From: a virus
DNA length: 53,402 bases
IMG/VR virus record: IMGVR_UViG_3300029267_000987
Coordinates: 1 to 53,402 of that record
Direction: 5' to 3' (one strand)
The notes under the pieces were generated by a model. It was not told where the DNA came from. It was given only the letters and a program-made list of their open reading frames with translations, and did not search any database. Below are positions 630 through 45,007 of this stretch, one piece after another. Made by a program: the position numbers and the translations under genes. How positions within the stretch are numbered: position 1 is the first letter of the stretch; each line of letters starts with the position of its first letter.

Positions 630-853
630 GGGCCAGTAGTTTAATTGGTAGAACGTTTCAGATTTTAGGATTGGAAGGTATTGAGCTTGGATGGAGATGA
701 AAAATCTGACGTGGAGTATGTTCTCATGCGAAACAATCAGATTTATTTGGTGAAATGTCGTGACGGCGACAGAGGAACCATCACCGGATAGCTTGATATT
801 ATGCGTAGTCCTAGTAGCTGAGACTTATACAGGTTCGAATCCTGTCTGGCCCA
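630..853 (+). tRNA. tRNA, probably Lys(UUU), with an intron of about 149 bases
   Basis: The acceptor strands GGGCCAG (630-636) and CTGGCCC (846-852) pair perfectly, with discriminator A853; CCA is not encoded. The D arm is GTTT, loop AATTGGTA, GAAC. The T arm is ACAGG, loop TTCGAAT, CCTGT (829-845). The variable loop is CTTAT. The anticodon stem is 656-661 paired with 818-823, six pairs instead of five. If the intron spans about 668-816, the loop is ATTTTAG: U33, anticodon UUU, A37, interrupted at the usual archaeal 37/38 position. The acceptor sequence also resembles archaeal tRNA-Lys. The intron has internal helices 679-687/789-797 and 666-671/808-813. A standard bulge-helix-bulge motif is not obvious, so exact junctions and anticodon are tentative. 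Confidence 0.75.
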
Positions 854-33943: not shown

Positions 33944-35092
33944 TTAAATGTAGCCAGACTTGATAGCCTTAGCATACTGATGGGCATTGAACAGACCACA
34001 TCCAAACAGTTCGTTCACAAGAGTTGGTTGAGATTTCTCCCATGTCTTGACCCGAAGGTCGCCAGACTTGGCTTCCATCTCTTCAACCTTAGCGACAGGT
34101 TTCTTCTTGTAGGTATACTTTCCAAGCCTTCCGCCTTTCTGACAGACGAAAGCGATACCCTCATACATCCTTTCAGAGACAAGGAAATTCACTCCGGCGG
34201 TCTTGCCTATTTCCCCATTCATCAGAACTGCATTGGAACCATACCTATCTGCATCTGTGAACCGGTCATCCTTCTCCAAGTCGTTCATCTCATTCTCATT
34301 CAGAACGCAGGTATTACCCTTACCGTAGCAAGAGCTTCTGATTTTGGTCTTGCCATTGACCACATCATCTCTGCCGAACCTCTTTACAGAGACGACTTCG
34401 AGAGCGTTAGTCAAATCAGAATAGATGTAATCACAGTTTGGATTACCGACTGTCGGGGCAGTGACAAACTCAATTCTGCCTCTGAAGAAATCAACGTAGA
34501 AATCTACGCCGATAGTCTGAGCAACAGGGCCAGCCCCATAGTCAGCAGTAAGTGTGGTAATCTCTAAAACCTTGTCGTGGTCTAGGGCGAACCTCTTGGC
34601 GGTTCCAGTGGCAGCAGACAATACTTCGCCAGTTACCACAGTAGCCTGAAGGACTTCGTTCCAGACACGAGAGTCAGACTTTCTTGCCATACCAGCAGCA
34701 AGAGCATGTTCTGTTTCAACCACAGCATTAATATCCATTGCGTCTATCGCATCTTCGTAGACGATTTCTGAATGACCAAATTTGGTTGGAATTGAATCTA
34801 CTGTGGAGAAAACTTCAGGAGTCAGAACCGGAGGAACATCGTCACCAGCATTGAAATCCCGAGCATCTGACATCGGAGCAGCTTTCCTGTAAGTTCTGAT
34901 TCTACCTGGTTTTCCGACTAGCTTGGTATCTTCCTCAAGAATCTGCTTACCTACTAACATCGGCTCCAAGTCGTGGATTATGTCTTTGGTAATCAGCTTC
35001 TGTATACCAGATGAGGTAACATCAGCTTCGTCAAAGGTAAAATCTTCGAACTTCAGTTCTATGCCATCCTGATACTTTTTCTTGTATTTCAT
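33944..35092 (-). CDS. Major capsid protein, HK97-like, 382 aa
   Basis: It follows the scaffold gene and is the expected length. Pattern: N-arm (YKKKYQDGIELKF), a long helix region around DAIDAMDINAVVETEHAL (the spine helix), then beta-rich A and P domains, and a basic, helical end. It matches HK97-fold capsid proteins of archaeal and bacterial tailed viruses in layout rather than by a single motif. ATG 35,092 is 6 bases from AGGTG. A dedicated promoter upstream of the scaffold suits high expression. Confidence 0.8.
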   Translation of the reverse strand: MKYKKKYQDGIELKFEDFTFDEADVTSSGIQKLITKDIIHDLEPMLVGKQILEEDTKLVGKPGRIRTYRKAAPMSDARDFNAGDDVPPVLTPEVFSTVDSIPTKFGHSEIVYEDAIDAMDINAVVETEHALAAGMARKSDSRVWNEVLQATVVTGEVLSAATGTAKRFALDHDKVLEITTLTADYGAGPVAQTIGVDFYVDFFRGRIEFVTAPTVGNPNCDYIYSDLTNALEVVSVKRFGRDDVVNGKTKIRSSCYGKGNTCVLNENEMNDLEKDDRFTDADRYGSNAVLMNGEIGKTAGVNFLVSERMYEGIAFVCQKGGRLGKYTYKKKPVAKVEEMEAKSGDLRVKTWEKSQPTLVNELFGCGLFNAHQYAKAIKSGYI

Positions 35093-35101
35093 CTGCATCA
35101 C

Positions 35102-35659
35102 CTAGAAGGAAAGACCGCCTTCAATTCCTTTCAACAGAGCAACGGCTCCGCTACCTGGAACGTGGTCATCTGAGAAATCCTCTTCATCCTCAGTCTCTTC
35201 CTCTTCAGGTGGGTCTTTCTTCGGAGGTTCAGACGACTTCGGATTAGGTTCGTCATCATCGTTATCTTCTGATAACTTGTTCTTCAGCTCTTCAAGTTCC
35301 TTCTGTTGAGCTTCGAACTTCTCGGTCATGGTCTGGAGGAGAGCGAAAGTCTCGTCATCCTTCTTCTTGTCCTTCTTGTTCTCTTCCATCCATTTCTTCA
35401 GACCATCGGGGATAGAACCTTTGTCATCTTTCTTCTTCTTATCATCATCTTCTTCAGGTTCATCCTCTTCAGGTTCGCCAGGAGAGGGATATTCATCTCC
35501 CTTCTTCTTAACGAACAACTGACCATCCTTTAACTCTAAGTGGAACTTATCTGTGGGAATTCCCACCCCATCCTTAGAGTCCGAATCAGTCTTAACTCCA
35601 AGCTCTTCTAATTGCTTCTTCAGAGCATCGAAGTCTGAGGGTTTGTCGGTATCTGACAT
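35102..35659 (-). CDS. Capsid scaffold protein, 185 aa
   Basis: Highly acidic and Lys-rich low-complexity protein with coiled coils (MTEKFEAQQKELEELKNKL) and a short hydrophobic end, placed immediately before the major capsid protein. This is the usual form of a scaffold. It is probably removed by the protease domain of the upstream 1,800-residue protein. Confidence 0.75.
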   Translation of the reverse strand: MSDTDKPSDFDALKKQLEELGVKTDSDSKDGVGIPTDKFHLELKDGQLFVKKKGDEYPSPGEPEEDEPEEDDDKKKKDDKGSIPDGLKKWMEENKKDKKKDDETFALLQTMTEKFEAQQKELEELKNKLSEDNDDDEPNPKSSEPPKKDPPEEEETEDEEDFSDDHVPGSGAVALLKGIEGGLSF

Positions 35660-35738: not shown

Positions 35739-38700
35739 TTAGAGGGTCTTTGGTAGAATACCTTTGGGAAATGTCTTACACTTATCCCCCTGACAAGCAA
35801 CCTGTATTTGAGCATTGGAAACAGCTGGAGAGTGACAGATTGCAGCTCCACAGATAGCTAACCAATCAGGGTCACCATTCTCATCAGAGGAAAATGCAAC
35901 TTCTGCTGATATTTGATACGTTCCATTATTGATAGCAGTTATGGCATCCTTATCTGTTACTACTCCATCAAACATCAAGGCTCCTTTCTTCCATTCATTA
36001 TCTAGTTCACAATACCATTTCTCATTATCATCCCACCAGATATTAGTCATTATTCCACCTCTACTACTCTCTTCTCTGTTGTGGAAAAAATTGATATAGG
36101 CAAGATTAGTTCCTCTATGAATCGGTTCTAATACGGCATTCTGAACAACTTCCCGTCTGTAAGTCTTACCTTTATGTTCACCTTGTCGGAATAGAAATCC
36201 CTTCTCTATCCTAAGACTACCATCTTCACGCATACTAGATTTCTTGATAACAAAATCCATATGCTCAATAGAGAAATCATGTTCTTCATAGGAGTCCCTA
36301 GAGACAGTCCAAATCTGAGTTCCCTTCTCCTGCTTGAAGTTATAGATACCTTTAACAGATTTACCTTTCATTCTGATTTTCATGAAGTCAGGATGAAGAG
36401 AAAGAATCTCTCCCATGCCTTCATCTAGTAAGGAAATATGAGAGGGTGTGTCTTTAGTAGGATTCAAGGGATGACCAGGTTTAACATCTCCATCTATTCG
36501 AACATACTTCAGATTCCTATCCTCCATCACGGATGCAGTTTTAGTTTCAACTGGATTCCGTTCAGTAGCATATGAGAATACCTTACCACCCAGTAGTATG
36601 TTGAAGTAGAATATAGTTCGACTAGGCCCAGCTCTAACTATTTCAGTCCCCCTCCAGGTTTGCTTCTGTAATGTGAAGTAGGTATCTATCGGAGGGGTGA
36701 TGTTGGGTAGTTCAAGGTTCTCTATCTTACCTCTCATCTCTTTCCGCAATCTATTACGAATCTTCAATCTCTCAGATTCATCCTCATGTTTCCAGTAGCG
36801 GAATCCTTCTGGAACTTTCTTTTCTACGGATTTAGGTAAGGCAGATATGTTATAAGGAGGAACCCAACCAACCTTCTCGGCTCTGGCTGTCAGAACATAT
36901 GGTGGATTATTTGTCGGGAAGAAGAACCAGACCATCTTACTCTTACCTGTCTTGTCACTCCAAACATTCTTCAAGAGTCTATCTACATACTTACCTTTCA
37001 GAATACGACCATGATAGACATATTCATGGAAGTGAGGTTTCAGGGTAAGGGACTCTACTTCACCTTTATCCAGATTGATTAGATATCCAGGATTATGCTT
37101 AGTGGCTCCTGGTTCCTCTACTGGGATATAACCTTCCTTATCCCACCATTCTAGAGGGACAAGAGCTTTCTTCTGAGACAAGAACTTCTTTCGTGGGTCA
37201 GTCAGGCTCTTCTTCAACTCTGGCCATATCTCCTTATAGAATAGATTCTTAGCATCAGTGAAGTTCTTAGGTTCACGACTTAACTGGAAATTCTCGTGTT
37301 CTGTATCAGAGAACTTAGTGAATCCAATATCATGAGTCATTCCAACACCCCATGATTTAGTTACTTGTCGTCTATCATCTAAATGGATAGACCGACCACG
37401 AATATGAGCTTGTAGAACAAACTGGGGTTTTTCTACTTCAGGATAGGTTAAGTATGGGTCTGTAAAGTCCTCCATATCAAATTCAAAGTCTGAAACAGCT
37501 TCACGATATTCTTGGGGCATCTTCTTCTCTGTGTCTTCAGATTTAGTTTCTTTATTCAATCTATCAGCTAACTTAACAGTATTAGGCACATCCAGGTCAT
37601 CACGCCATTCTAGGAAGCGAGGGTTAAACCAGTTGAACCAAATGTCATCTGTATCAGGGTCAAGGTATTTATTCAGATTCACAAACTCAACTCTGATAAT
37701 ATCTCCCTTACGGAGAACTCTTGGGGGGCTGATAGCCTTTGAGATAGTTACGTTATATGTCCAACCGACGGGAATTATCTTATCACCAGAATCTGAGGAG
37801 ACACCACACAGATAGTTAAATGTCCCTTTCGTCTCAGTCTCTTTCACTTTGATAATCTGACAATCCAGGAAAGCAGTATTCTTAAACTTAACCCATTTAC
37901 GGGTCAGACCGGATAGGGGATAGGTGGAGGATAGGACTTTGATAACAGCTCCTTCAGAACCCTTAACCTTCCTCTGTGTATTAATAGCTTTCCGCAACTC
38001 ACCAGAATTCTTAGCTATCATAATTGGGATGACGTTCAGAAATTCAAACTTACCTTTCTTAGCAAAGTCTTGCATATTGTCAGGTCTAAATCGTAGTGGA
38101 TGCTCTTTCATCTCAATCTTCTTAGATTGCTTAGATTTATCAATAACCTTCTGGATACCAGAGTCATCTACGTCACCCTCATCTACTGTGAACCCTTCAA
38201 TATCTTCATAGTAAGGACTGAATCCCCTCTCTAGAAATGTGCGTCTAGATGATAAATCCTTAGTGTGAATATCCTTATCAGACCAATAGACCGTATCATA
38301 TATATTCATCTTAAAGGGTGAATCATCTGGGTCACCTTTAGAATGAGCATATCCTGACACAAACTGTCTACCCATATGCTTACCTTTATCTGTCGTTCCT
38401 GTAATCTCACCAATTACTACAAAATCTTCAGGAATACGGAGAGCTTCTTCAACAGCTGTTGGGAAGCGATGAGTCAGGTCCCCACCGTCATCAGAATAAA
38501 GACGAACCTTACTACCAACCTTATGAAGCTGAGCTGATAGACCATCATACTTCTGGTCTACTTCAACCGGATATTCACTTCCAATCGTTTCGACAACTGA
38601 ATCTATATCATAAGCTTCCAGACGCTTATAGCCTTTGATACCCTTAGCCTGCCAGAAGAATCTACCTGGTTCTATCTTATCTTCTGATTTAGATTTAGCT

Positions 38701-41141
38701 GCTTCAGATTGTCTAGTGGGTGTGAGGAAATGAGCCTCAGATATTTCATCTCGACAGAAGTTGTCAAACCCTTCAGCAGTTCTAAACTTTAGATTACTAA
38801 GCGACTGATTAGACATGAGGAACAGGAGTTCTTCTTCACCAGAATGCATCTTTGGTTTAGGGAAGATATATTTGTAGGGTATCTTCTTAATCTTGATATT
38901 ACTAAAGAATTTCTTCAAGAATCTGGTAAGCTTACCCCTGGGAACAGTCTTAGATGTTTTGTAAGATAGCAGGACATAGTTGAACTTAGATTTGGCAGGT
39001 TCAAGGACTTTGCCCAATCTATCGTAGAAATTATCAGGAGTCCAGTTTCCTGACAGTTTCAAATTCTCAGCGTTTCCAAATACTACATGCTCCCAGTAAT
39101 CATATCTCTTATAGTAGTCTTTAGTGTTACCAGTCTCAGATACGTAAGGGGGGTCTAGGTAAAGGATAGATTGACCATCAGGTAATTCAGATATAGATTT
39201 AAGGAAGTTCGATATATCAGAACGGACAAAGCGAGACTTACCACCTTTATCTGTTATGAACTTATTATACATGGCAGTCCATTTCCTTATACCAGATTTC
39301 ATTATGTTTAGCATAGAGGTATTTTCTTTCTTCATTCTAGCATAAACTCTCTGATGAATACCGTCACGTAGGCCACCACCAAAACACATACTACCAGCAA
39401 CAGAGAGCATAACAGCCTTAGCTATCTCCCTTTTAGGTGAAGGCATCGAATCTGCTACCTTACGATAGCCATCCATATATTTCTTACAGGATGGGGTGAA
39501 GTTTATATTCGACAGTGACAGATTTGTCATATGACCATTCTCAGGTTTAGCAGAAAGTAATACATTCAGGTCATTATCGGATAAGGTAGTAGTGTTGTTA
39601 GATACAACAGCACTATGAATCACTTGACCAATCTTAGATACATCTACTCCAACAACATCTAAGCCAATCTTCTTAGAGAAATAAGAGACAACACCAGAGC
39701 CAGAAAAGCCATCCACCATAAATCTAACATCTGATGGAATAGTCTCTAGTATAGTTTTAATGATTTTACGCTTAGAACCTAGATAAGCAAAGGGATAGGA
39801 GACAAAATCATCTGTCTCGAATGTGAAATCAGCCTCCATATGTTCTACTTTCATAGTAGATAGAGAGGTTTGTAGGTCATATACAGGAACATAATCTGTA
39901 AATGGGCCAAAATAGTCTTGTTTATTATTGTAGTGGAAGTGGAATCTAGGCCACCATTCTTTAGGAAATTGGCGATAAATGCGGAATTCAAGGGGCAGAT
40001 TAGGCTTACGCTGGTTGATTAATACATCTATATCACCCTCAGTAAACCCATGTGTAACTATTCCACCTACTAAGTAGGCTAAGGGTTTAGTTATTTTAAA
40101 GGGTTTTAGAGTAGAAAGAACCTCTTCCAATTGGATATGATTAAGCCCTTTAGATAGACCACCTCTATTAACATGAGCATACTGACCGATACCAGGTCTA
40201 TCATCTCTCCTCATCTTCCCCCCACATTCTGGACATTTTATATCTTCACAATGTTTATCTGTTTTGATAATATGTCCACACTCAAGACATTCACACTCCC
40301 AATCAGACTCAGAATTGAGAGACTTAGATATATTTATAGCACGAAGCATCTTCTCTGTCTCGGATTTATCAGTATGACAGCTACCAGGTAAGATACTATC
40401 TGACCCTTCTTTCCTGATACACCACTTACTACCCCTTCGGACTATCACATTATCTTCAGTTTCAATGAAGTCTACATCATAGTATTCAGAGAATATATCT
40501 TTATTCTTAATACGGCTAACAGCTCTATCAAGTAATTCTGCTTCCGGTGTCCCTTCTTCAGGCAACTTGAATCTCATACCTCTTTTCAGAATCTCCCTCA
40601 GTATGATTTGAGCCGTATTCTCTATGTCCTCTCTAGAATACTTAGGGTGCTTACCTGTTTTCTTCCAGACCTTATACCATGATTCTAGAATACGCCAATC
40701 ATCTAGTAATTGAATATCATCTATCTTACGTGGGTCATAGTTATAAGGGTCAATCAGTTGGACAGAGTGATGCGGGTCAGTTTTTATTTCTAGATTGAAT
40801 ATAAAATCTTTCCCATCTTGTGGTTCTATTACAACTGGTTCATTGAAAGGTCGGAATCTGAAAACGTATCCATATGCTGGATATTTGAAATGATTATTAA
40901 AGTTATCAGAATTGTAACCATGCAGAGGTCCCAACTCCTCTAACATACCTTCACCAGCAATATCAAGAATCTTGTAGATATAAATAGAACCAGGAGAGAA
41001 TATCTGGGAATTATCAGAATCTGGATAGAGGATATAATCTTGTCCAAACGTTTCATCGAACTTATCTTGTCTGATGAATATCTTAATAGAGTTCGTGGTA
41101 ATCAGGTCTACTTCATTCTGTGTCAGACGTATCGCTTTCAT
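35739..41141 (-). CDS. Giant multi-enzyme protein: nucleotidyltransferase, Dam methylase, DNA ligase, LigD-type segments, prohead protease
   Basis: 1,800 residues between portal and scaffold, the place of a capsid protease. In order: an unassigned N-terminus; a zinc ribbon (about 280-310, CECLECGH/CPECGGK); a minimal nucleotidyltransferase (about 355-375, LVGGIVTHGFTEGDIDVLI); a D12-class adenine methyltransferase with AYLGSKRK (452-459), FSGSG and DPPY (about 660); an ATP-dependent DNA ligase with KYDG (about 862), VIGEI, EGAVIK and KWVKFK (about 1080), then an OB fold; two segments like the LigD phosphoesterase (QFVLQAHIRG near 1240; YFTLQKQTWRG near 1470); and a prohead-protease-like end (about 1590-1800) with FHN and ISAEV as likely His and Ser. 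All ligase motifs look intact. No internal stop is seen. GGAGGTGA precedes the ATG. Confidence 0.85.
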   Translation of the reverse strand: MKAIRLTQNEVDLITTNSIKIFIRQDKFDETFGQDYILYPDSDNSQIFSPGSIYIYKILDIAGEGMLEELGPLHGYNSDNFNNHFKYPAYGYVFRFRPFNEPVVIEPQDGKDFIFNLEIKTDPHHSVQLIDPYNYDPRKIDDIQLLDDWRILESWYKVWKKTGKHPKYSREDIENTAQIILREILKRGMRFKLPEEGTPEAELLDRAVSRIKNKDIFSEYYDVDFIETEDNVIVRRGSKWCIRKEGSDSILPGSCHTDKSETEKMLRAINISKSLNSESDWECECLECGHIIKTDKHCEDIKCPECGGKMRRDDRPGIGQYAHVNRGGLSKGLNHIQLEEVLSTLKPFKITKPLAYLVGGIVTHGFTEGDIDVLINQRKPNLPLEFRIYRQFPKEWWPRFHFHYNNKQDYFGPFTDYVPVYDLQTSLSTMKVEHMEADFTFETDDFVSYPFAYLGSKRKIIKTILETIPSDVRFMVDGFSGSGVVSYFSKKIGLDVVGVDVSKIGQVIHSAVVSNNTTTLSDNDLNVLLSAKPENGHMTNLSLSNINFTPSCKKYMDGYRKVADSMPSPKREIAKAVMLSVAGSMCFGGGLRDGIHQRVYARMKKENTSMLNIMKSGIRKWTAMYNKFITDKGGKSRFVRSDISNFLKSISELPDGQSILYLDPPYVSETGNTKDYYKRYDYWEHVVFGNAENLKLSGNWTPDNFYDRLGKVLEPAKSKFNYVLLSYKTSKTVPRGKLTRFLKKFFSNIKIKKIPYKYIFPKPKMHSGEEELLFLMSNQSLSNLKFRTAEGFDNFCRDEISEAHFLTPTRQSEAAKSKSEDKIEPGRFFWQAKGIKGYKRLEAYDIDSVVETIGSEYPVEVDQKYDGLSAQLHKVGSKVRLYSDDGGDLTHRFPTAVEEALRIPEDFVVIGEITGTTDKGKHMGRQFVSGYAHSKGDPDDSPFKMNIYDTVYWSDKDIHTKDLSSRRTFLERGFSPYYEDIEGFTVDEGDVDDSGIQKVIDKSKQSKKIEMKEHPLRFRPDNMQDFAKKGKFEFLNVIPIMIAKNSGELRKAINTQRKVKGSEGAVIKVLSSTYPLSGLTRKWVKFKNTAFLDCQIIKVKETETKGTFNYLCGVSSDSGDKIIPVGWTYNVTISKAISPPRVLRKGDIIRVEFVNLNKYLDPDTDDIWFNWFNPRFLEWRDDLDVPNTVKLADRLNKETKSEDTEKKMPQEYREAVSDFEFDMEDFTDPYLTYPEVEKPQFVLQAHIRGRSIHLDDRRQVTKSWGVGMTHDIGFTKFSDTEHENFQLSREPKNFTDAKNLFYKEIWPELKKSLTDPRKKFLSQKKALVPLEWWDKEGYIPVEEPGATKHNPGYLINLDKGEVESLTLKPHFHEYVYHGRILKGKYVDRLLKNVWSDKTGKSKMVWFFFPTNNPPYVLTARAEKVGWVPPYNISALPKSVEKKVPEGFRYWKHEDESERLKIRNRLRKEMRGKIENLELPNITPPIDTYFTLQKQTWRGTEIVRAGPSRTIFYFNILLGGKVFSYATERNPVETKTASVMEDRNLKYVRIDGDVKPGHPLNPTKDTPSHISLLDEGMGEILSLHPDFMKIRMKGKSVKGIYNFKQEKGTQIWTVSRDSYEEHDFSIEHMDFVIKKSSMREDGSLRIEKGFLFRQGEHKGKTYRREVVQNAVLEPIHRGTNLAYINFFHNREESSRGGIMTNIWWDDNEKWYCELDNEWKKGALMFDGVVTDKDAITAINNGTYQISAEVAFSSDENGDPDWLAICGAAICHSPAVSNAQIQVACQGDKCKTFPKGILPKTL

Positions 41142-42487
41142 CAGTTCACCTCCATCAGTTTCTCAGCCTTATCAACTAATTCGTCATGAGTCTCAAGACC
41201 AATCATTTCTAACAGCTTACGTCTAATCTTCTCATTCTCTTCTTCATCTTTCCCATAGAGGACTTCTGCTTTAGCCATACGGAAAATTTGCATAATCTTC
41301 TCTTTTGCAGAGGCCGTCAGAATCTCATCGTAATTTATCCAGACCTCAACTTCTGGTCTACCAGTCCACGCAGATATGGCAGCTTCCATCCCTAAGCTAC
41401 GAACAAATGATTTCAGACGAATCTCATAAAATTCAGACAGGACATCTAATCCACGTGAAGGCTGATCTTCCATTGTCATCAGGTAGATAGGAAGAGGTAG
41501 ACCAATCATAGCAGCTTCAATACGTCTACCAGCCATCTCATCTTCATAGATTGACTTACCTGTATTAGTAGGTAACATATTATCCATGAACTCTATCTTC
41601 ATATATTCAGGATAAACTGCTGCAACACTGTTTGGATTTACTATCTGTTCCGCTACCTTCTTAGCTTCACCTTTCCTCTTATTAGTTGAAGGTATACGTT
41701 CATTACCATATTGGACAATAGGAACAGGATATCCCTGACGGAAAGCTCTCTGAGTCCTAGCATCTTGGATAGCAAGAATCTGTTTTGTATTGTTATAGAG
41801 TAATTCTCCCCAGCCCCAAGCCCACTCAGTGTTATGGATTTGGATAAATGGTGACCAGAGACAATCCTTTCCAAATAGATACTTCTCTTCTCTAGTTTTC
41901 TCATCTGTTATACCAACAGGTCTACCGTTCTTAGTCATAACATCTCTATATCCTCTCTGACTATTAGGGTCTCTAATAAGTTCATATTGTCTAATATCCA
42001 TCACTAAAAAGTCTTTAATGTTCTTAGACTTACCTCCCTTAACTAATTCAATGAGAGTATTTCCAAAGATTCCCTGGTGGAAGGGAGCCATACGGAGAAA
42101 AACCTGCTGGAAGTGTGACCTGTTTTCAGGATAAATCTCTTTGAAGAATTGTTCTGATAACTTCTTATCATCTATATGTATTTTAGTAGGGTCTATTAGT
42201 TCTTGGCAGGCAGTCTGATACATGTGGATACCAGAGAGGAGTAATGGGTTAGAGAACACTTGAGACTCAAGTTCATAGAAGCTCTTACGGGGAAGTGCAT
42301 TATCTTTACTCTCCCAAGACTTAACCCGTAACCGTTCCTTTATGTAATCTAGAAAGGTAATGCTCTTAGATGTAATTCCAAATCCTTTCCCATCATCTCT
42401 GTGATGTTTATAGTCAGATTCGCTCACCCTCTTATACCTGTGTTTAGGCCTCTTAGCCTTCTTTCTATTATCTCTGAACGGCCACAT
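41141..42487 (-). CDS. Portal protein, 448 aa
   Basis: It follows the large terminase. Helical segments include LSGIHMYQTACQELID, then LAIQDARTQRAFRQGYP, a central MLPTNTGKSIYEDEMAGRR, and PIYLMTMEDQPSRGLDVLSE, a layout typical of portal proteins. AGGTGGT is 4 bases before ATG 42,487. The stop overlaps the start of the giant protein (TGATG). Confidence 0.8.
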   Translation of the reverse strand: MWPFRDNRKKAKRPKHRYKRVSESDYKHHRDDGKGFGITSKSITFLDYIKERLRVKSWESKDNALPRKSFYELESQVFSNPLLLSGIHMYQTACQELIDPTKIHIDDKKLSEQFFKEIYPENRSHFQQVFLRMAPFHQGIFGNTLIELVKGGKSKNIKDFLVMDIRQYELIRDPNSQRGYRDVMTKNGRPVGITDEKTREEKYLFGKDCLWSPFIQIHNTEWAWGWGELLYNNTKQILAIQDARTQRAFRQGYPVPIVQYGNERIPSTNKRKGEAKKVAEQIVNPNSVAAVYPEYMKIEFMDNMLPTNTGKSIYEDEMAGRRIEAAMIGLPLPIYLMTMEDQPSRGLDVLSEFYEIRLKSFVRSLGMEAAISAWTGRPEVEVWINYDEILTASAKEKIMQIFRMAKAEVLYGKDEEENEKIRRKLLEMIGLETHDELVDKAEKLMEVN

Positions 42488-42489
42488 GT

Positions 42490-44076
42490 CTACCACCTTT
42501 TCTTCTGAATTAATCCATATTCTTCACTATCGTCTATTTCCCGCATATCTTCCCTGGTGAGACCAGATGATTCTTTCCTCTTATTATCACTGTCCTCTAA
42601 ATAATCGTCAGCATATTGTCCTGCTGCGTCTAGTGTCAAGCGATGAGCATCAGGGAAATCAGACTTATACTGTTCCCCTTTCTTATTCCTATGATCTATC
42701 CTAACCTTCTGACCCACCTTCTTCGAGACTAATGCACACATCTGTTTCTCAAACAAATCTACTTCCCTTCTCTTAACATCAGGATAGGAGTAGTAGCGAG
42801 TCTGAGTTTTCAGTTTCATCTGTGTAAAAGATTCATCTCGGGCATCTGTTGTAGTATTGACCCTAACTAAGTTCTGAATCTGTGGGATTATTCGCCCATC
42901 TTTCAACTCCGTATCTCGTTCTAAGAAATCATTTAACACGTGGCCAGGCCCCGTATTCTCTGCTTGAAATTCAATCAAGTTGAATCTCGAAGCAGCTACC
43001 CTGAGTTTGACGGACTGAGCCGGATAATCATCACCTTTCAGTTGCAACCAGAATATGACTTGTCTGTCACGCAGACGCATTATCTCCATAACAGTATCGT
43101 CATTAGATTTAGCAATATCTAGACCACCGACACATTTCTCACGACACTCCTCTAACCATTCTCCTTTCTTACACTTACGAAGCGTCTTAGTATCCATGTA
43201 GTCATCGCCCTCTTCTGGGTCCCATTCACAGAAATATTGGGAACGGATAGCGGGATGTTCTATTCCATGCTCTCTAATTTTCTTCAAGACGTGTCTACGG
43301 TATTGAGCAGTTCCAGCAGTTCTGAATACTTCTTCAATAGGGATGATGATGAAATCTGGGTTAGGAGGTAATCCTTTAGCTCTCCTCTCTAACTCCTCTA
43401 GTATTCTGTAATAAACTTTACCATGTTCCTTATCCTCATGAGATGGGGAAAAGATGTGAACTAGAGTCCCACTCCTAGCAGCTAACATCGGTTCTATCGA
43501 CTTAATAATCTTGGTAGTATCTACTGCTTGAGCCTCTTCTATTATTCCCAAATCTAAATCCGGCCCCTCCATGAACTTAGCGTTAGGGGAGGCAGTATGA
43601 GTCAGGATATGGGAACGAGTAGAGAGCCTGATATGCTTTGAGTTATTAGTATCTGCATGAACACCTAGGAAGTCTGTGTAGTAAGCAGATTCAACCCTAT
43701 CCTTAATCTTATCGGTAAGCATTTTAGAAGTCTCGTCTGATGGACCATATATACCAGAGTTAAGGCCATTAGCGAATTGAGGGTAAGCTTGATGGAAGAA
43801 GAGAGGGATGAATGTAGATAATTGGGTAACAGCTTCTGAGATACCCTGAGATTTACCAGTCTGTCTAGGCAACTGGACATAGAATACTCGACCCTCTTGG
43901 TTTAGAACAGATTGGATAATGGGCCAGAGGAATTTCATTTGGTAGGGTCGGGGAATCATCCCAGTGACCGCTAGAGAGATTCGTTTAAAAAGAGTTGGCG
44001 TATATTCTTGCAAGTCATAATATCTAGCAACTTCATTCTGAAGTCTTAGGTCTAGACGAGTCTTTACCATCTTCAT
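42490..44076 (-). CDS. terL: Terminase large subunit
   Basis: 528 residues. ATPase: Walker A LPRQTGKSQ (about 68-76), Walker B LGIIEEAQ (about 177-184), coupling motif VHIFSPS. Nuclease: GGLDIAKSNDD (about 320-330), EFQAENTG (E about 377) and DFPDAHRLTLDAA (about 495), the Asp/Glu/Asp set of the RNase-H-like nuclease. It packages genomic DNA through the portal. It overlaps the upstream gene by 44 bases. Confidence 0.92.
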   Translation of the reverse strand: MKMVKTRLDLRLQNEVARYYDLQEYTPTLFKRISLAVTGMIPRPYQMKFLWPIIQSVLNQEGRVFYVQLPRQTGKSQGISEAVTQLSTFIPLFFHQAYPQFANGLNSGIYGPSDETSKMLTDKIKDRVESAYYTDFLGVHADTNNSKHIRLSTRSHILTHTASPNAKFMEGPDLDLGIIEEAQAVDTTKIIKSIEPMLAARSGTLVHIFSPSHEDKEHGKVYYRILEELERRAKGLPPNPDFIIIPIEEVFRTAGTAQYRRHVLKKIREHGIEHPAIRSQYFCEWDPEEGDDYMDTKTLRKCKKGEWLEECREKCVGGLDIAKSNDDTVMEIMRLRDRQVIFWLQLKGDDYPAQSVKLRVAASRFNLIEFQAENTGPGHVLNDFLERDTELKDGRIIPQIQNLVRVNTTTDARDESFTQMKLKTQTRYYSYPDVKRREVDLFEKQMCALVSKKVGQKVRIDHRNKKGEQYKSDFPDAHRLTLDAAGQYADDYLEDSDNKRKESSGLTREDMREIDDSEEYGLIQKKRW

Positions 44077-45007
44077 CACTACCTTTACCCGAACTCCACT
44101 CTATCTGCATCCCTTCCTCTTGAACACGAGACTGCTCATAAGCATCCTGCATCCGTTCTAGGATTAGATTATCATCCTCAAGAGATAGGTCATCTCTGAC
44201 CATCATCTCCTCCTGTCGGGTAACTTCATCATCATCCTCAAAGTCGTCTGGTATAGCCTTCGACTGACCCTGTGGAACCTTAACTACGTGAACAGGTCTT
44301 TCATCTTCACTGATTGGAGGGGGAACAGGACTTGTCATATTCTTCCTACGCATCCCCTTACCGAAGGTCTTATCTAACGCCTTCAATCTCAGTTTCAGAA
44401 TCTCAACATCTCCACGCTCTGCCTGAGTCCAACCCTGGAAGGTTGAGAAAGATTTCAGGTCTTTCATGAACTCAGTTTGCCATTGTTTCATCTCTTTCTG
44501 AATCTTTAGAAACATCTCCCTATCATCTTTAATTGCTAAGTCTAGTGACGTGAGGAATCTATCAAACCTCTCAATCATCTTCTTATCTCTCTTCAGAATA
44601 GTCCTCATCTCTTCAGTAGCATCTTCTCTTTCCTTCATCTTAGATTTGTCAAGGTCTAGTTCATAAACACAGACCCCGTTCTTATTCTTACTATATTTAC
44701 AGGTTGCGGCTACCATACAGTTCTTGCATCTAAGTATCTCGGTGTTTAAGAAATCTCCCAACTTATCTTCACATTCCTTACAGAAGCCAGAGGGTCTGTT
44801 CGTGACATTATCGCAGTCCTTATTCTCACAGGCTACCATTTCTTTTCGTATATCTAAAATAGAAGGGTCTGATTTATTAGCCGCAGACCGACCAATCCGT
44901 ATTTTACGTAGCGATTCTACTCTCTCCCTCAGCCTATCCCTATCAGAACTAGAACGGGGATTCTCAGGCATATCTTCATTAGTTTGAAATACGGGTTCAT
45001 CAGGCAT
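44033..45007 (-). CDS. Candidate small terminase with zinc knuckles, 324 aa
   Basis: First gene of the morphogenesis cluster. Residues 58-110 have two Cys clusters (CENKDC...CKECEDK and CKNCMVAATC...C). The middle is a long charged coiled coil and the end is acidic. Position before the large terminase, coiled coil and DNA-binding-type fingers suggest the small subunit, but no helix-turn-helix was recognised. Confidence 0.55.
   Translation of the reverse strand: MPDEPVFQTNEDMPENPRSSSDRDRLRERVESLRKIRIGRSAANKSDPSILDIRKEMVACENKDCDNVTNRPSGFCKECEDKLGDFLNTEILRCKNCMVAATCKYSKNKNGVCVYELDLDKSKMKEREDATEEMRTILKRDKKMIERFDRFLTSLDLAIKDDREMFLKIQKEMKQWQTEFMKDLKSFSTFQGWTQAERGDVEILKLRLKALDKTFGKGMRRKNMTSPVPPPISEDERPVHVVKVPQGQSKAIPDDFEDDDEVTRQEEMMVRDDLSLEDDNLILERMQDAYEQSRVQEEGMQIEWSSGKGSDEDGKDSSRPKTSE

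What the first reader, a model, noticed from the sequence alone, without database searches (positions are those of the whole stretch)
35739..41141. A five-enzyme polyprotein fused to a capsid protease
One uninterrupted 1,800-codon gene joins a nucleotidyltransferase-like domain, a Dam-type adenine methylase, a full ATP-dependent DNA ligase, two LigD phosphoesterase-like segments and a prohead-protease-like end. Its place between portal and scaffold is that of a capsid protease, which normally enters the procapsid. Inference: the enzymes are packaged, then freed by self-cleavage and delivered with the genome to seal nicks, join ends (circularise) or methylate incoming DNA. Ligase plus LigD-type phosphoesterase recalls NHEJ. 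I know of no named system of this form.
Basis: partly seen in the sequence, partly recalled or inferred. Interest (0 to 1): 0.92.

Follow-up and report, generated by a model that had tools for sequence, protein, structure and literature searches.

The report
Capsid-linked DNA-repair enzyme polyprotein
A virus that probably infects archaea makes one giant protein joining a nucleotidyltransferase, a DNA methylase, a DNA ligase and DNA-end-cleaning domains to what looks like its capsid protease, and dozens of other uncultured viruses carry the same enzyme set in the same head-gene position, which suggests that a DNA-repair kit travels inside the virus particle.

Summary
The gene is real: an uninterrupted 1,800-codon ORF, on the minus strand (35739-41141), overlapping the portal stop by one base. 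It holds an EndoV-like helical segment, a Zn ribbon, a Pol-beta-like NTase, a D12 adenine methylase, an ATP-dependent DNA-ligase core with all catalytic motifs, two LigD-type phosphoesterase (PE) domains (the first with the intact metal site) and a C-terminal domain best read as a herpes/S78-type capsid protease. It is not a one-off: 86 non-redundant relatives carry parts or all of NTase-ligase-PE-PE. Upstream genes are often portals; a capsid protease is fused (21) or downstream, usually the next gene (47), in 68 of 79 loci not cut by contig ends. Retrieval used only PE and NTase sequence, so this synteny was not selected for. Accessory domains and domain order vary. The only relative among 50,697 phage records is ANMV-1 virus. 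Ku was found in none of 42 records. Best explanation: a late head-module polyvalent-type protein whose enzymes enter the procapsid with the protease and act on incoming DNA ends or nicks. Packaging, cleavage and delivery remain inferred. I found no description of this fusion in the papers searched. New variant of a known kind.

The parts
35739..41141 (-). 1,800-aa polyprotein (whole gene)
40536..40739 (-). residues 135-202: helical segment shared with many family members, weakly like T4 EndoV (Pyr_excise)
   Evidence: window 1.3e-21 in iterated profile; PF03013 weak in relatives
40206..40298 (-). residues 282-312: Zn ribbon
   Evidence: NF033497 3.4e-6, below cut-off; RNAP subunit P-like, weak
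39831..40178 (-). residues 322-437: Pol-beta-superfamily-like nucleotidyltransferase (GG...DID)
   Evidence: fold matches not significant
38802..39797 (-). residues 449-780: D12 N6-adenine DNA methyltransferase, inserted between NTase and ligase relative to ANMV-1
37572..38618 (-). residues 842-1190: ATP-dependent DNA ligase core with motifs I, III, IV, V
36732..37460 (-). residues 1228-1470: LigD-type phosphoesterase PE1, metal ligands H1246/H1253/D1255 intact
36297..36677 (-). residues 1489-1615: PE2, PE homologue without the metal ligands; resembles small PE-like ORFs in archaeal genomes
35808..36239 (-). residues 1635-1778: capsid-protease-like domain, His1687 and Ser1745 conserved
41141..42496 (-). 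portal protein (upstream neighbour)
   Evidence: hhalign 99.96%, E 5.5e-39, to the gene in the same position in relative L049; no Pfam or PHROG hit
42490..44079 (-). terminase large subunit
   Evidence: (phrog_2 5.3e-12)
35102..35659 (-). acidic scaffold-like protein
   Evidence: position and composition; phrog_8764 0.021
33944..35101 (-). HK97-type major capsid protein
   Evidence: phrog_1650 4.4e-8; 25 relatives, all downstream of the cassette

Best explanation
The gene is a late head-module protein of the polyvalent type. Its C-terminal capsid-protease domain takes the polyprotein into the procapsid with the scaffold (inferred). During maturation the protease cuts it into working enzymes (inferred). 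These are held in or near the head and enter the next host with the genome (inferred). There PE1 would clean blocked or ribonucleotide 3' ends, the NTase may add or transfer nucleotides at ends or gaps, the ligase would seal nicks or join ends, and the D12 methylase would mark viral DNA against restriction. PE2 and the EndoV-like and Zn segments are probably DNA-binding or structural parts. Shown: the ORF, the domain set, intact ligase and PE1 active-site residues, and association with portal, capsid protease and MCP genes across many divergent viruses.
For: Cassette found at 86 non-redundant loci, retrieved only by PE and NTase similarity or by the ligase-PE core. Capsid protease fused in 21 and downstream in 47 of 79 loci not cut by contig ends (a few 'downstream' cases lie 2-6 kb away); some of the 11 'none' have a DUF2213 prohead-protease gene (L012, L005). 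Nearest upstream large ORFs hit portal and minor-head PHROGs. XkdF Peptidase_S78_2 in 13/36 polyproteins, best 7.9e-33. Ligase and PE1 catalytic residues nearly invariant. PE profile hits LigD PE structures. Accessory domains on nucleic acids (D12 methylase, PNK 3'-phosphatase, 2'-5' RNA ligase, metallo-beta-lactamase). Same parts in another order in L071. Precedents: Alt injection, P1 DarB in the head, P1 DdrB processed before packaging (PMC5512222).
Against: No virion proteomics or biochemistry. The window protease domain is divergent: leave-one-out E 0.0039, Foldseek best hits are herpesvirus proteases but E 0.056 and TM below 0.35. No cleavage sites identified. Many relatives have the enzymes as genes separate from the protease, so fusion is not required. 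The NTase third acidic residue is not conserved and PE2 lacks metal ligands. No Ku.
Confidence: 0.5

Rival explanations
1. The enzymes work during assembly and not in the next host: they repair nicks, gaps and blocked ends in concatemeric DNA as it is packaged, or at the portal/terminase, and the protease later removes them.
For: Same operon as terminase and portal; conserved head-module position; enzymes often separate genes from the protease.
Against: Fusion to the internal capsid protease in 21 loci is easier to explain by co-encapsidation; a methylase in several members could act earlier and gains little from this position.
Confidence: 0.2
2. The substrates are RNA: NTase, ligase and PE form an RNA-repair set that mends tRNA cut by host defence, like phage RNA ligase plus RlaP NTase systems.
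For: PE can remove 3' ribonucleotides (PMC8656161); phage RNA-repair NTases are known (PMC7824862); 2'-5' RNA ligase and PNK 3'-phosphatase domains in L015.
Against: The ligase is of the DNA-ligase family (PF01068, TIGR00574; RNA_ligase PF09414 hits only 3/36); the fused DNA methylase and EndoV-like segment point to DNA.
Confidence: 0.15
3. Ordinary co-expression: unrelated late or accessory genes were joined to the protease gene and act after translation as cytoplasmic replication or repair enzymes, never packaged.
For: No packaging data; domain order is fluid, as expected of gene fusion in a tightly packed operon.
Against: The same NTase-ligase-PE set recurs next to portal and protease in viruses with different portal and protease families.
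Confidence: 0.15

Closest known systems
ANMV-1 virus protein AJP62006 (KP703175, 866 aa, annotated ATP-dependent DNA ligase)
   Same: NTase-ligase-PE1-PE2 in the same order, about 30% identity, E 4e-106 over 773-1619; in a head-gene block
   Different: No methylase and no fused protease; its prohead protease is a separate gene; no other window protein matches ANMV-1 convincingly. The source paper does not use the word ligase in its main text.
Polyvalent proteins of phages and conjugative elements (Iyer et al. 2017, PMC5512222)
   Same: Many unrelated enzyme domains in one large protein, virion-gene context, predicted injection with DNA, peptidase domains that may self-process
   Different: In that text 'ligase' occurs only in one passage on RNA ligases and 2H domains, and 'prohead protease' only in the reference list; no LigD PE/ligase/capsid-protease fusion found there.
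Bacterial LigD and archaeal NHEJ ligase/PE proteins
   Same: ATP ligase core plus PE domain with conserved metal triad; PE2 resembles small stand-alone PE-like ORFs in archaeal genomes
   Different: No AEP polymerase domain matched and no Ku; two PE copies, NTase and capsid protease added.
XkdF / Peptidase_S78 capsid maturation proteases
   Same: Occupy the slot between portal and MCP; fused at the C-terminus of many relatives
   Different: In the four cultured phages examined they are separate proteins of about 150-400 aa without the enzymes.

Membership tests
Polyvalent proteins | Several disparate catalytic domains in one polypeptide | tested here: met
Polyvalent proteins | Encoded with virion/portal genes | tested here: met
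Polyvalent proteins | Packaged and injected with DNA | not testable with these tools
   needs virion mass spectrometry
Polyvalent proteins | Hallmark hub domains (zincin-like MPTase, DarB methylase-helicase) | tested here: not met
   none in Pfam/PHROGs/NCBIfam hits of P0001; not every published member has them
LigD / NHEJ | ATP-dependent ligase core | tested here: met
LigD / NHEJ | 3'-phosphoesterase with H/H/D metal site | tested here: met
   (PE1; correspondence of residues from the profile alignment and by eye, spacing one residue longer)
LigD / NHEJ | AEP polymerase domain | tested here: not met
   no such match
LigD / NHEJ | Ku partner in the same genome | tested here: not met
   0 of 42 virus records, control positive; many records are fragments; host Ku not tested
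Herpes/S78-type capsid protease | Conserved His and Ser in a protease-family alignment | tested here: met
   H1687, S1745
Herpes/S78-type capsid protease | Fold | tested here: inconclusive
   AF2 core pLDDT mostly above 80; top Foldseek hits EBV/HCMV/KSHV proteases, E 0.056-1.4
Pol-beta superfamily NTase | GG/GS...DxD motif and fold | tested here: inconclusive
   GG and DID present; third acid not conserved; best hits NTases but not significant

The most novel reading that the evidence does not exclude
A widespread class of head-tailed viruses, at least partly of archaea, carries inside the virion a Ku-less DNA end-healing and end-joining kit (3'-phosphoesterase, nucleotidyltransferase, ligase, sometimes methylase or 3'-phosphatase), made as a polyprotein and released by the capsid maturation protease, to repair or circularise the genome on entry.
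Probability: 0.4. Interest if true: 0.9.

Novelty: new variant of a known kind. Interest (0 to 1): 0.78.

Why it matters
If the enzymes are packaged, a capsid protease doubles as the releaser of a DNA-repair kit, so virion maturation and genome repair would be one process. It would give a reason for ligase and LigD-type PE in viruses without Ku, make genome entry in uncultured archaeal viruses testable from sequence, and offer new self-processing ligase/phosphoesterase enzymes. The family is large, and only ANMV-1 represents it in the phage collection searched.

Tried and rejected
Chance or assembly artefact: rejected, since the domains align along most of the ORF and similar long polyproteins occur in dozens of contigs. 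Window virus as a relative of ANMV-1 as a whole: rejected, only this protein matches. A fused methylase as a known phage theme from GenBank/PHROG labels 'DNA methyltransferase' on XkdF proteases: the two labelled proteins examined are only 213-350 aa, so no full methylase fits beside the protease and the label looks wrong; true D12 fusions in relatives are from Pfam. Ku/NHEJ: no Ku. Protease profile against PDB: nothing. MCM and PCNA as archaeal host markers: uninformative. Regular-expression search for a protease-associated motif at 220-272: nothing useful. Shared cleavage sites were not searched for.

Full report
OBSERVATION. The ORF 35739-41141 is intact, 1,800 codons, and lies on the minus strand. 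Its ATG overlaps the portal stop by one base and sits just after GGAGGTGA. The neighbours on the same strand are terminase (phrog_2, 5e-12), portal (hhalign 99.96% to the gene in the same place in L049), an acidic scaffold-like protein and an HK97-type MCP.

DOMAINS. Sequence profiles identify a D12 methylase (PF02086 3.9e-11; phrog_27806 2.6e-25) and an ATP-dependent DNA ligase core (PF01068 1.2e-14; TIGR00574 3.8e-15). Across about 90 family ligases the catalytic K864, E912, E1063, K1068 and K1085 are nearly invariant. A profile of the two following segments matches solved LigD phosphoesterases (3p43 1.7e-6; 3p4h 1.1e-4), with PE2 aligned over its length and PE1 at its metal motif. In LigD the manganese ligands are His42, His48 and Asp50 (PMC8656161); the equivalent PE1 residues H1246, H1253 and D1255 are invariant in the family. 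PE2 lacks them. The same profile picks up small (about 120-200 aa) PE-like ORFs in dozens of genomes of the phylum of one archaeal MAG. The NTase has GG...DID, and both a profile search and Foldseek put Pol-beta-superfamily enzymes first, but without significance. The C-terminal domain belongs to a family of proteases that are stand-alone in many relatives; leave-one-out E is 0.0039, H1687 and S1745 are conserved, and the AlphaFold2 model has herpesvirus capsid proteases as top matches, at E 0.056 and low TM. I call this moderate evidence.

RELATIVES. Searches with PE and NTase alignments gave 71 and 24 viral loci, and a search with the ligase-PE core gave loci in MAGs labelled Methanosarcinales, Methanophagales, Euryarchaeota, Omnitrophota and Micrarchaeota, the last matching in the ligase only. 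Iterated profiles on the non-redundant sequences show the order NTase-ligase-PE1-PE2 in one ORF (22 loci), NTase-ligase | PE-PE-PE in adjacent genes (13), NTase-PE-PE-ligase (9) and other forms, some cut by contig ends. Of 86 loci, a protease is fused in 21, downstream in 47 (mostly the next gene, a few 2-6 kb away), undetected in 11 and unknowable at contig ends in 7. Some of the 11 carry a DUF2213 prohead-protease gene. Pfam finds the XkdF protease in 13 of 36 polyproteins tested. The nearest upstream large ORFs often hit portal or minor-head families. Extra domains vary: D12 methylase, metallo-beta-lactamase, PNK 3'-phosphatase, 2'-5' RNA ligase, inteins. L071 has the window's set of NTase, PE, methylase, PE, ligase and protease in a different order. 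Among 50,697 phage records only ANMV-1 has the NTase-ligase-PE core.

HOST. ANMV-1 and one relative (L012) encode TBP; several relatives lie in archaeal MAGs; the window has an interrupted tRNA gene. An archaeal host is likely for the window but not proven, and other members may infect bacteria.

MECHANISM. The recurrent placement with portal, protease and MCP, across different portal and protease families, is the strongest evidence for a head-linked role. Joint encapsidation with the protease, cleavage and delivery follow by analogy with Alt, DarB and DdrB as described in PMC5512222. DNA as substrate follows from the ligase family and the methylase. RNA repair and a packaging-stage role remain open rivals.

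NOVELTY. Ten literature searches found no description of this fusion; subscription papers and preprints are largely outside the library, and supplements were not read. The main text of the ANME-1 virome paper PMC9894754 does not mention a ligase. The general kind, polyvalent virion-delivered proteins, is known. The ligase-PE-NTase-capsid protease form, and its breadth, appear new.

Noticed in passing
window 630-853 +: tRNA gene interrupted by about 150 nt (Rfam RF00005, 40.6 bits), missed by ARAGORN; suggests an archaeal-type tRNA intron.
   Followed up: partly
window 40536-40739 (residues 135-202 of P0001); L015:3964-4377: A roughly 70-aa helical segment, weakly like T4 EndoV (Pyr_excise), occurs once or twice in many polyproteins and as a small separate gene in L015.
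   Followed up: partly
L018, L021, L022, L023, L024, L038: The ligase domain is split between two adjacent genes in six contigs.
   Followed up: no
L052, L061, L076, L078, L079: Long insertions inside ligase or PE1, or between domains; some family members have intein or LAGLIDADG hits.
   Followed up: no
L008 647-6919: Cassette interrupted between ligase and PE by about 3.5 kb with 633- and 239-aa ORFs.
   Followed up: no
KP703175 1913-3193 (L003): ANMV-1 'MutT-like phage hydrolase' lies in the portal position and is homologous to genes in the same position in L005 and L009; likely a portal, not tested further.
   Followed up: partly
L043 9549-11993; L047 9535-12069: The downstream protease ORF carries two separate protease-like matches.
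   Followed up: no
genome handle G041 (MAG behind L005): Three cassette matches, two of them with stop codons, in one archaeal MAG.
   Followed up: no
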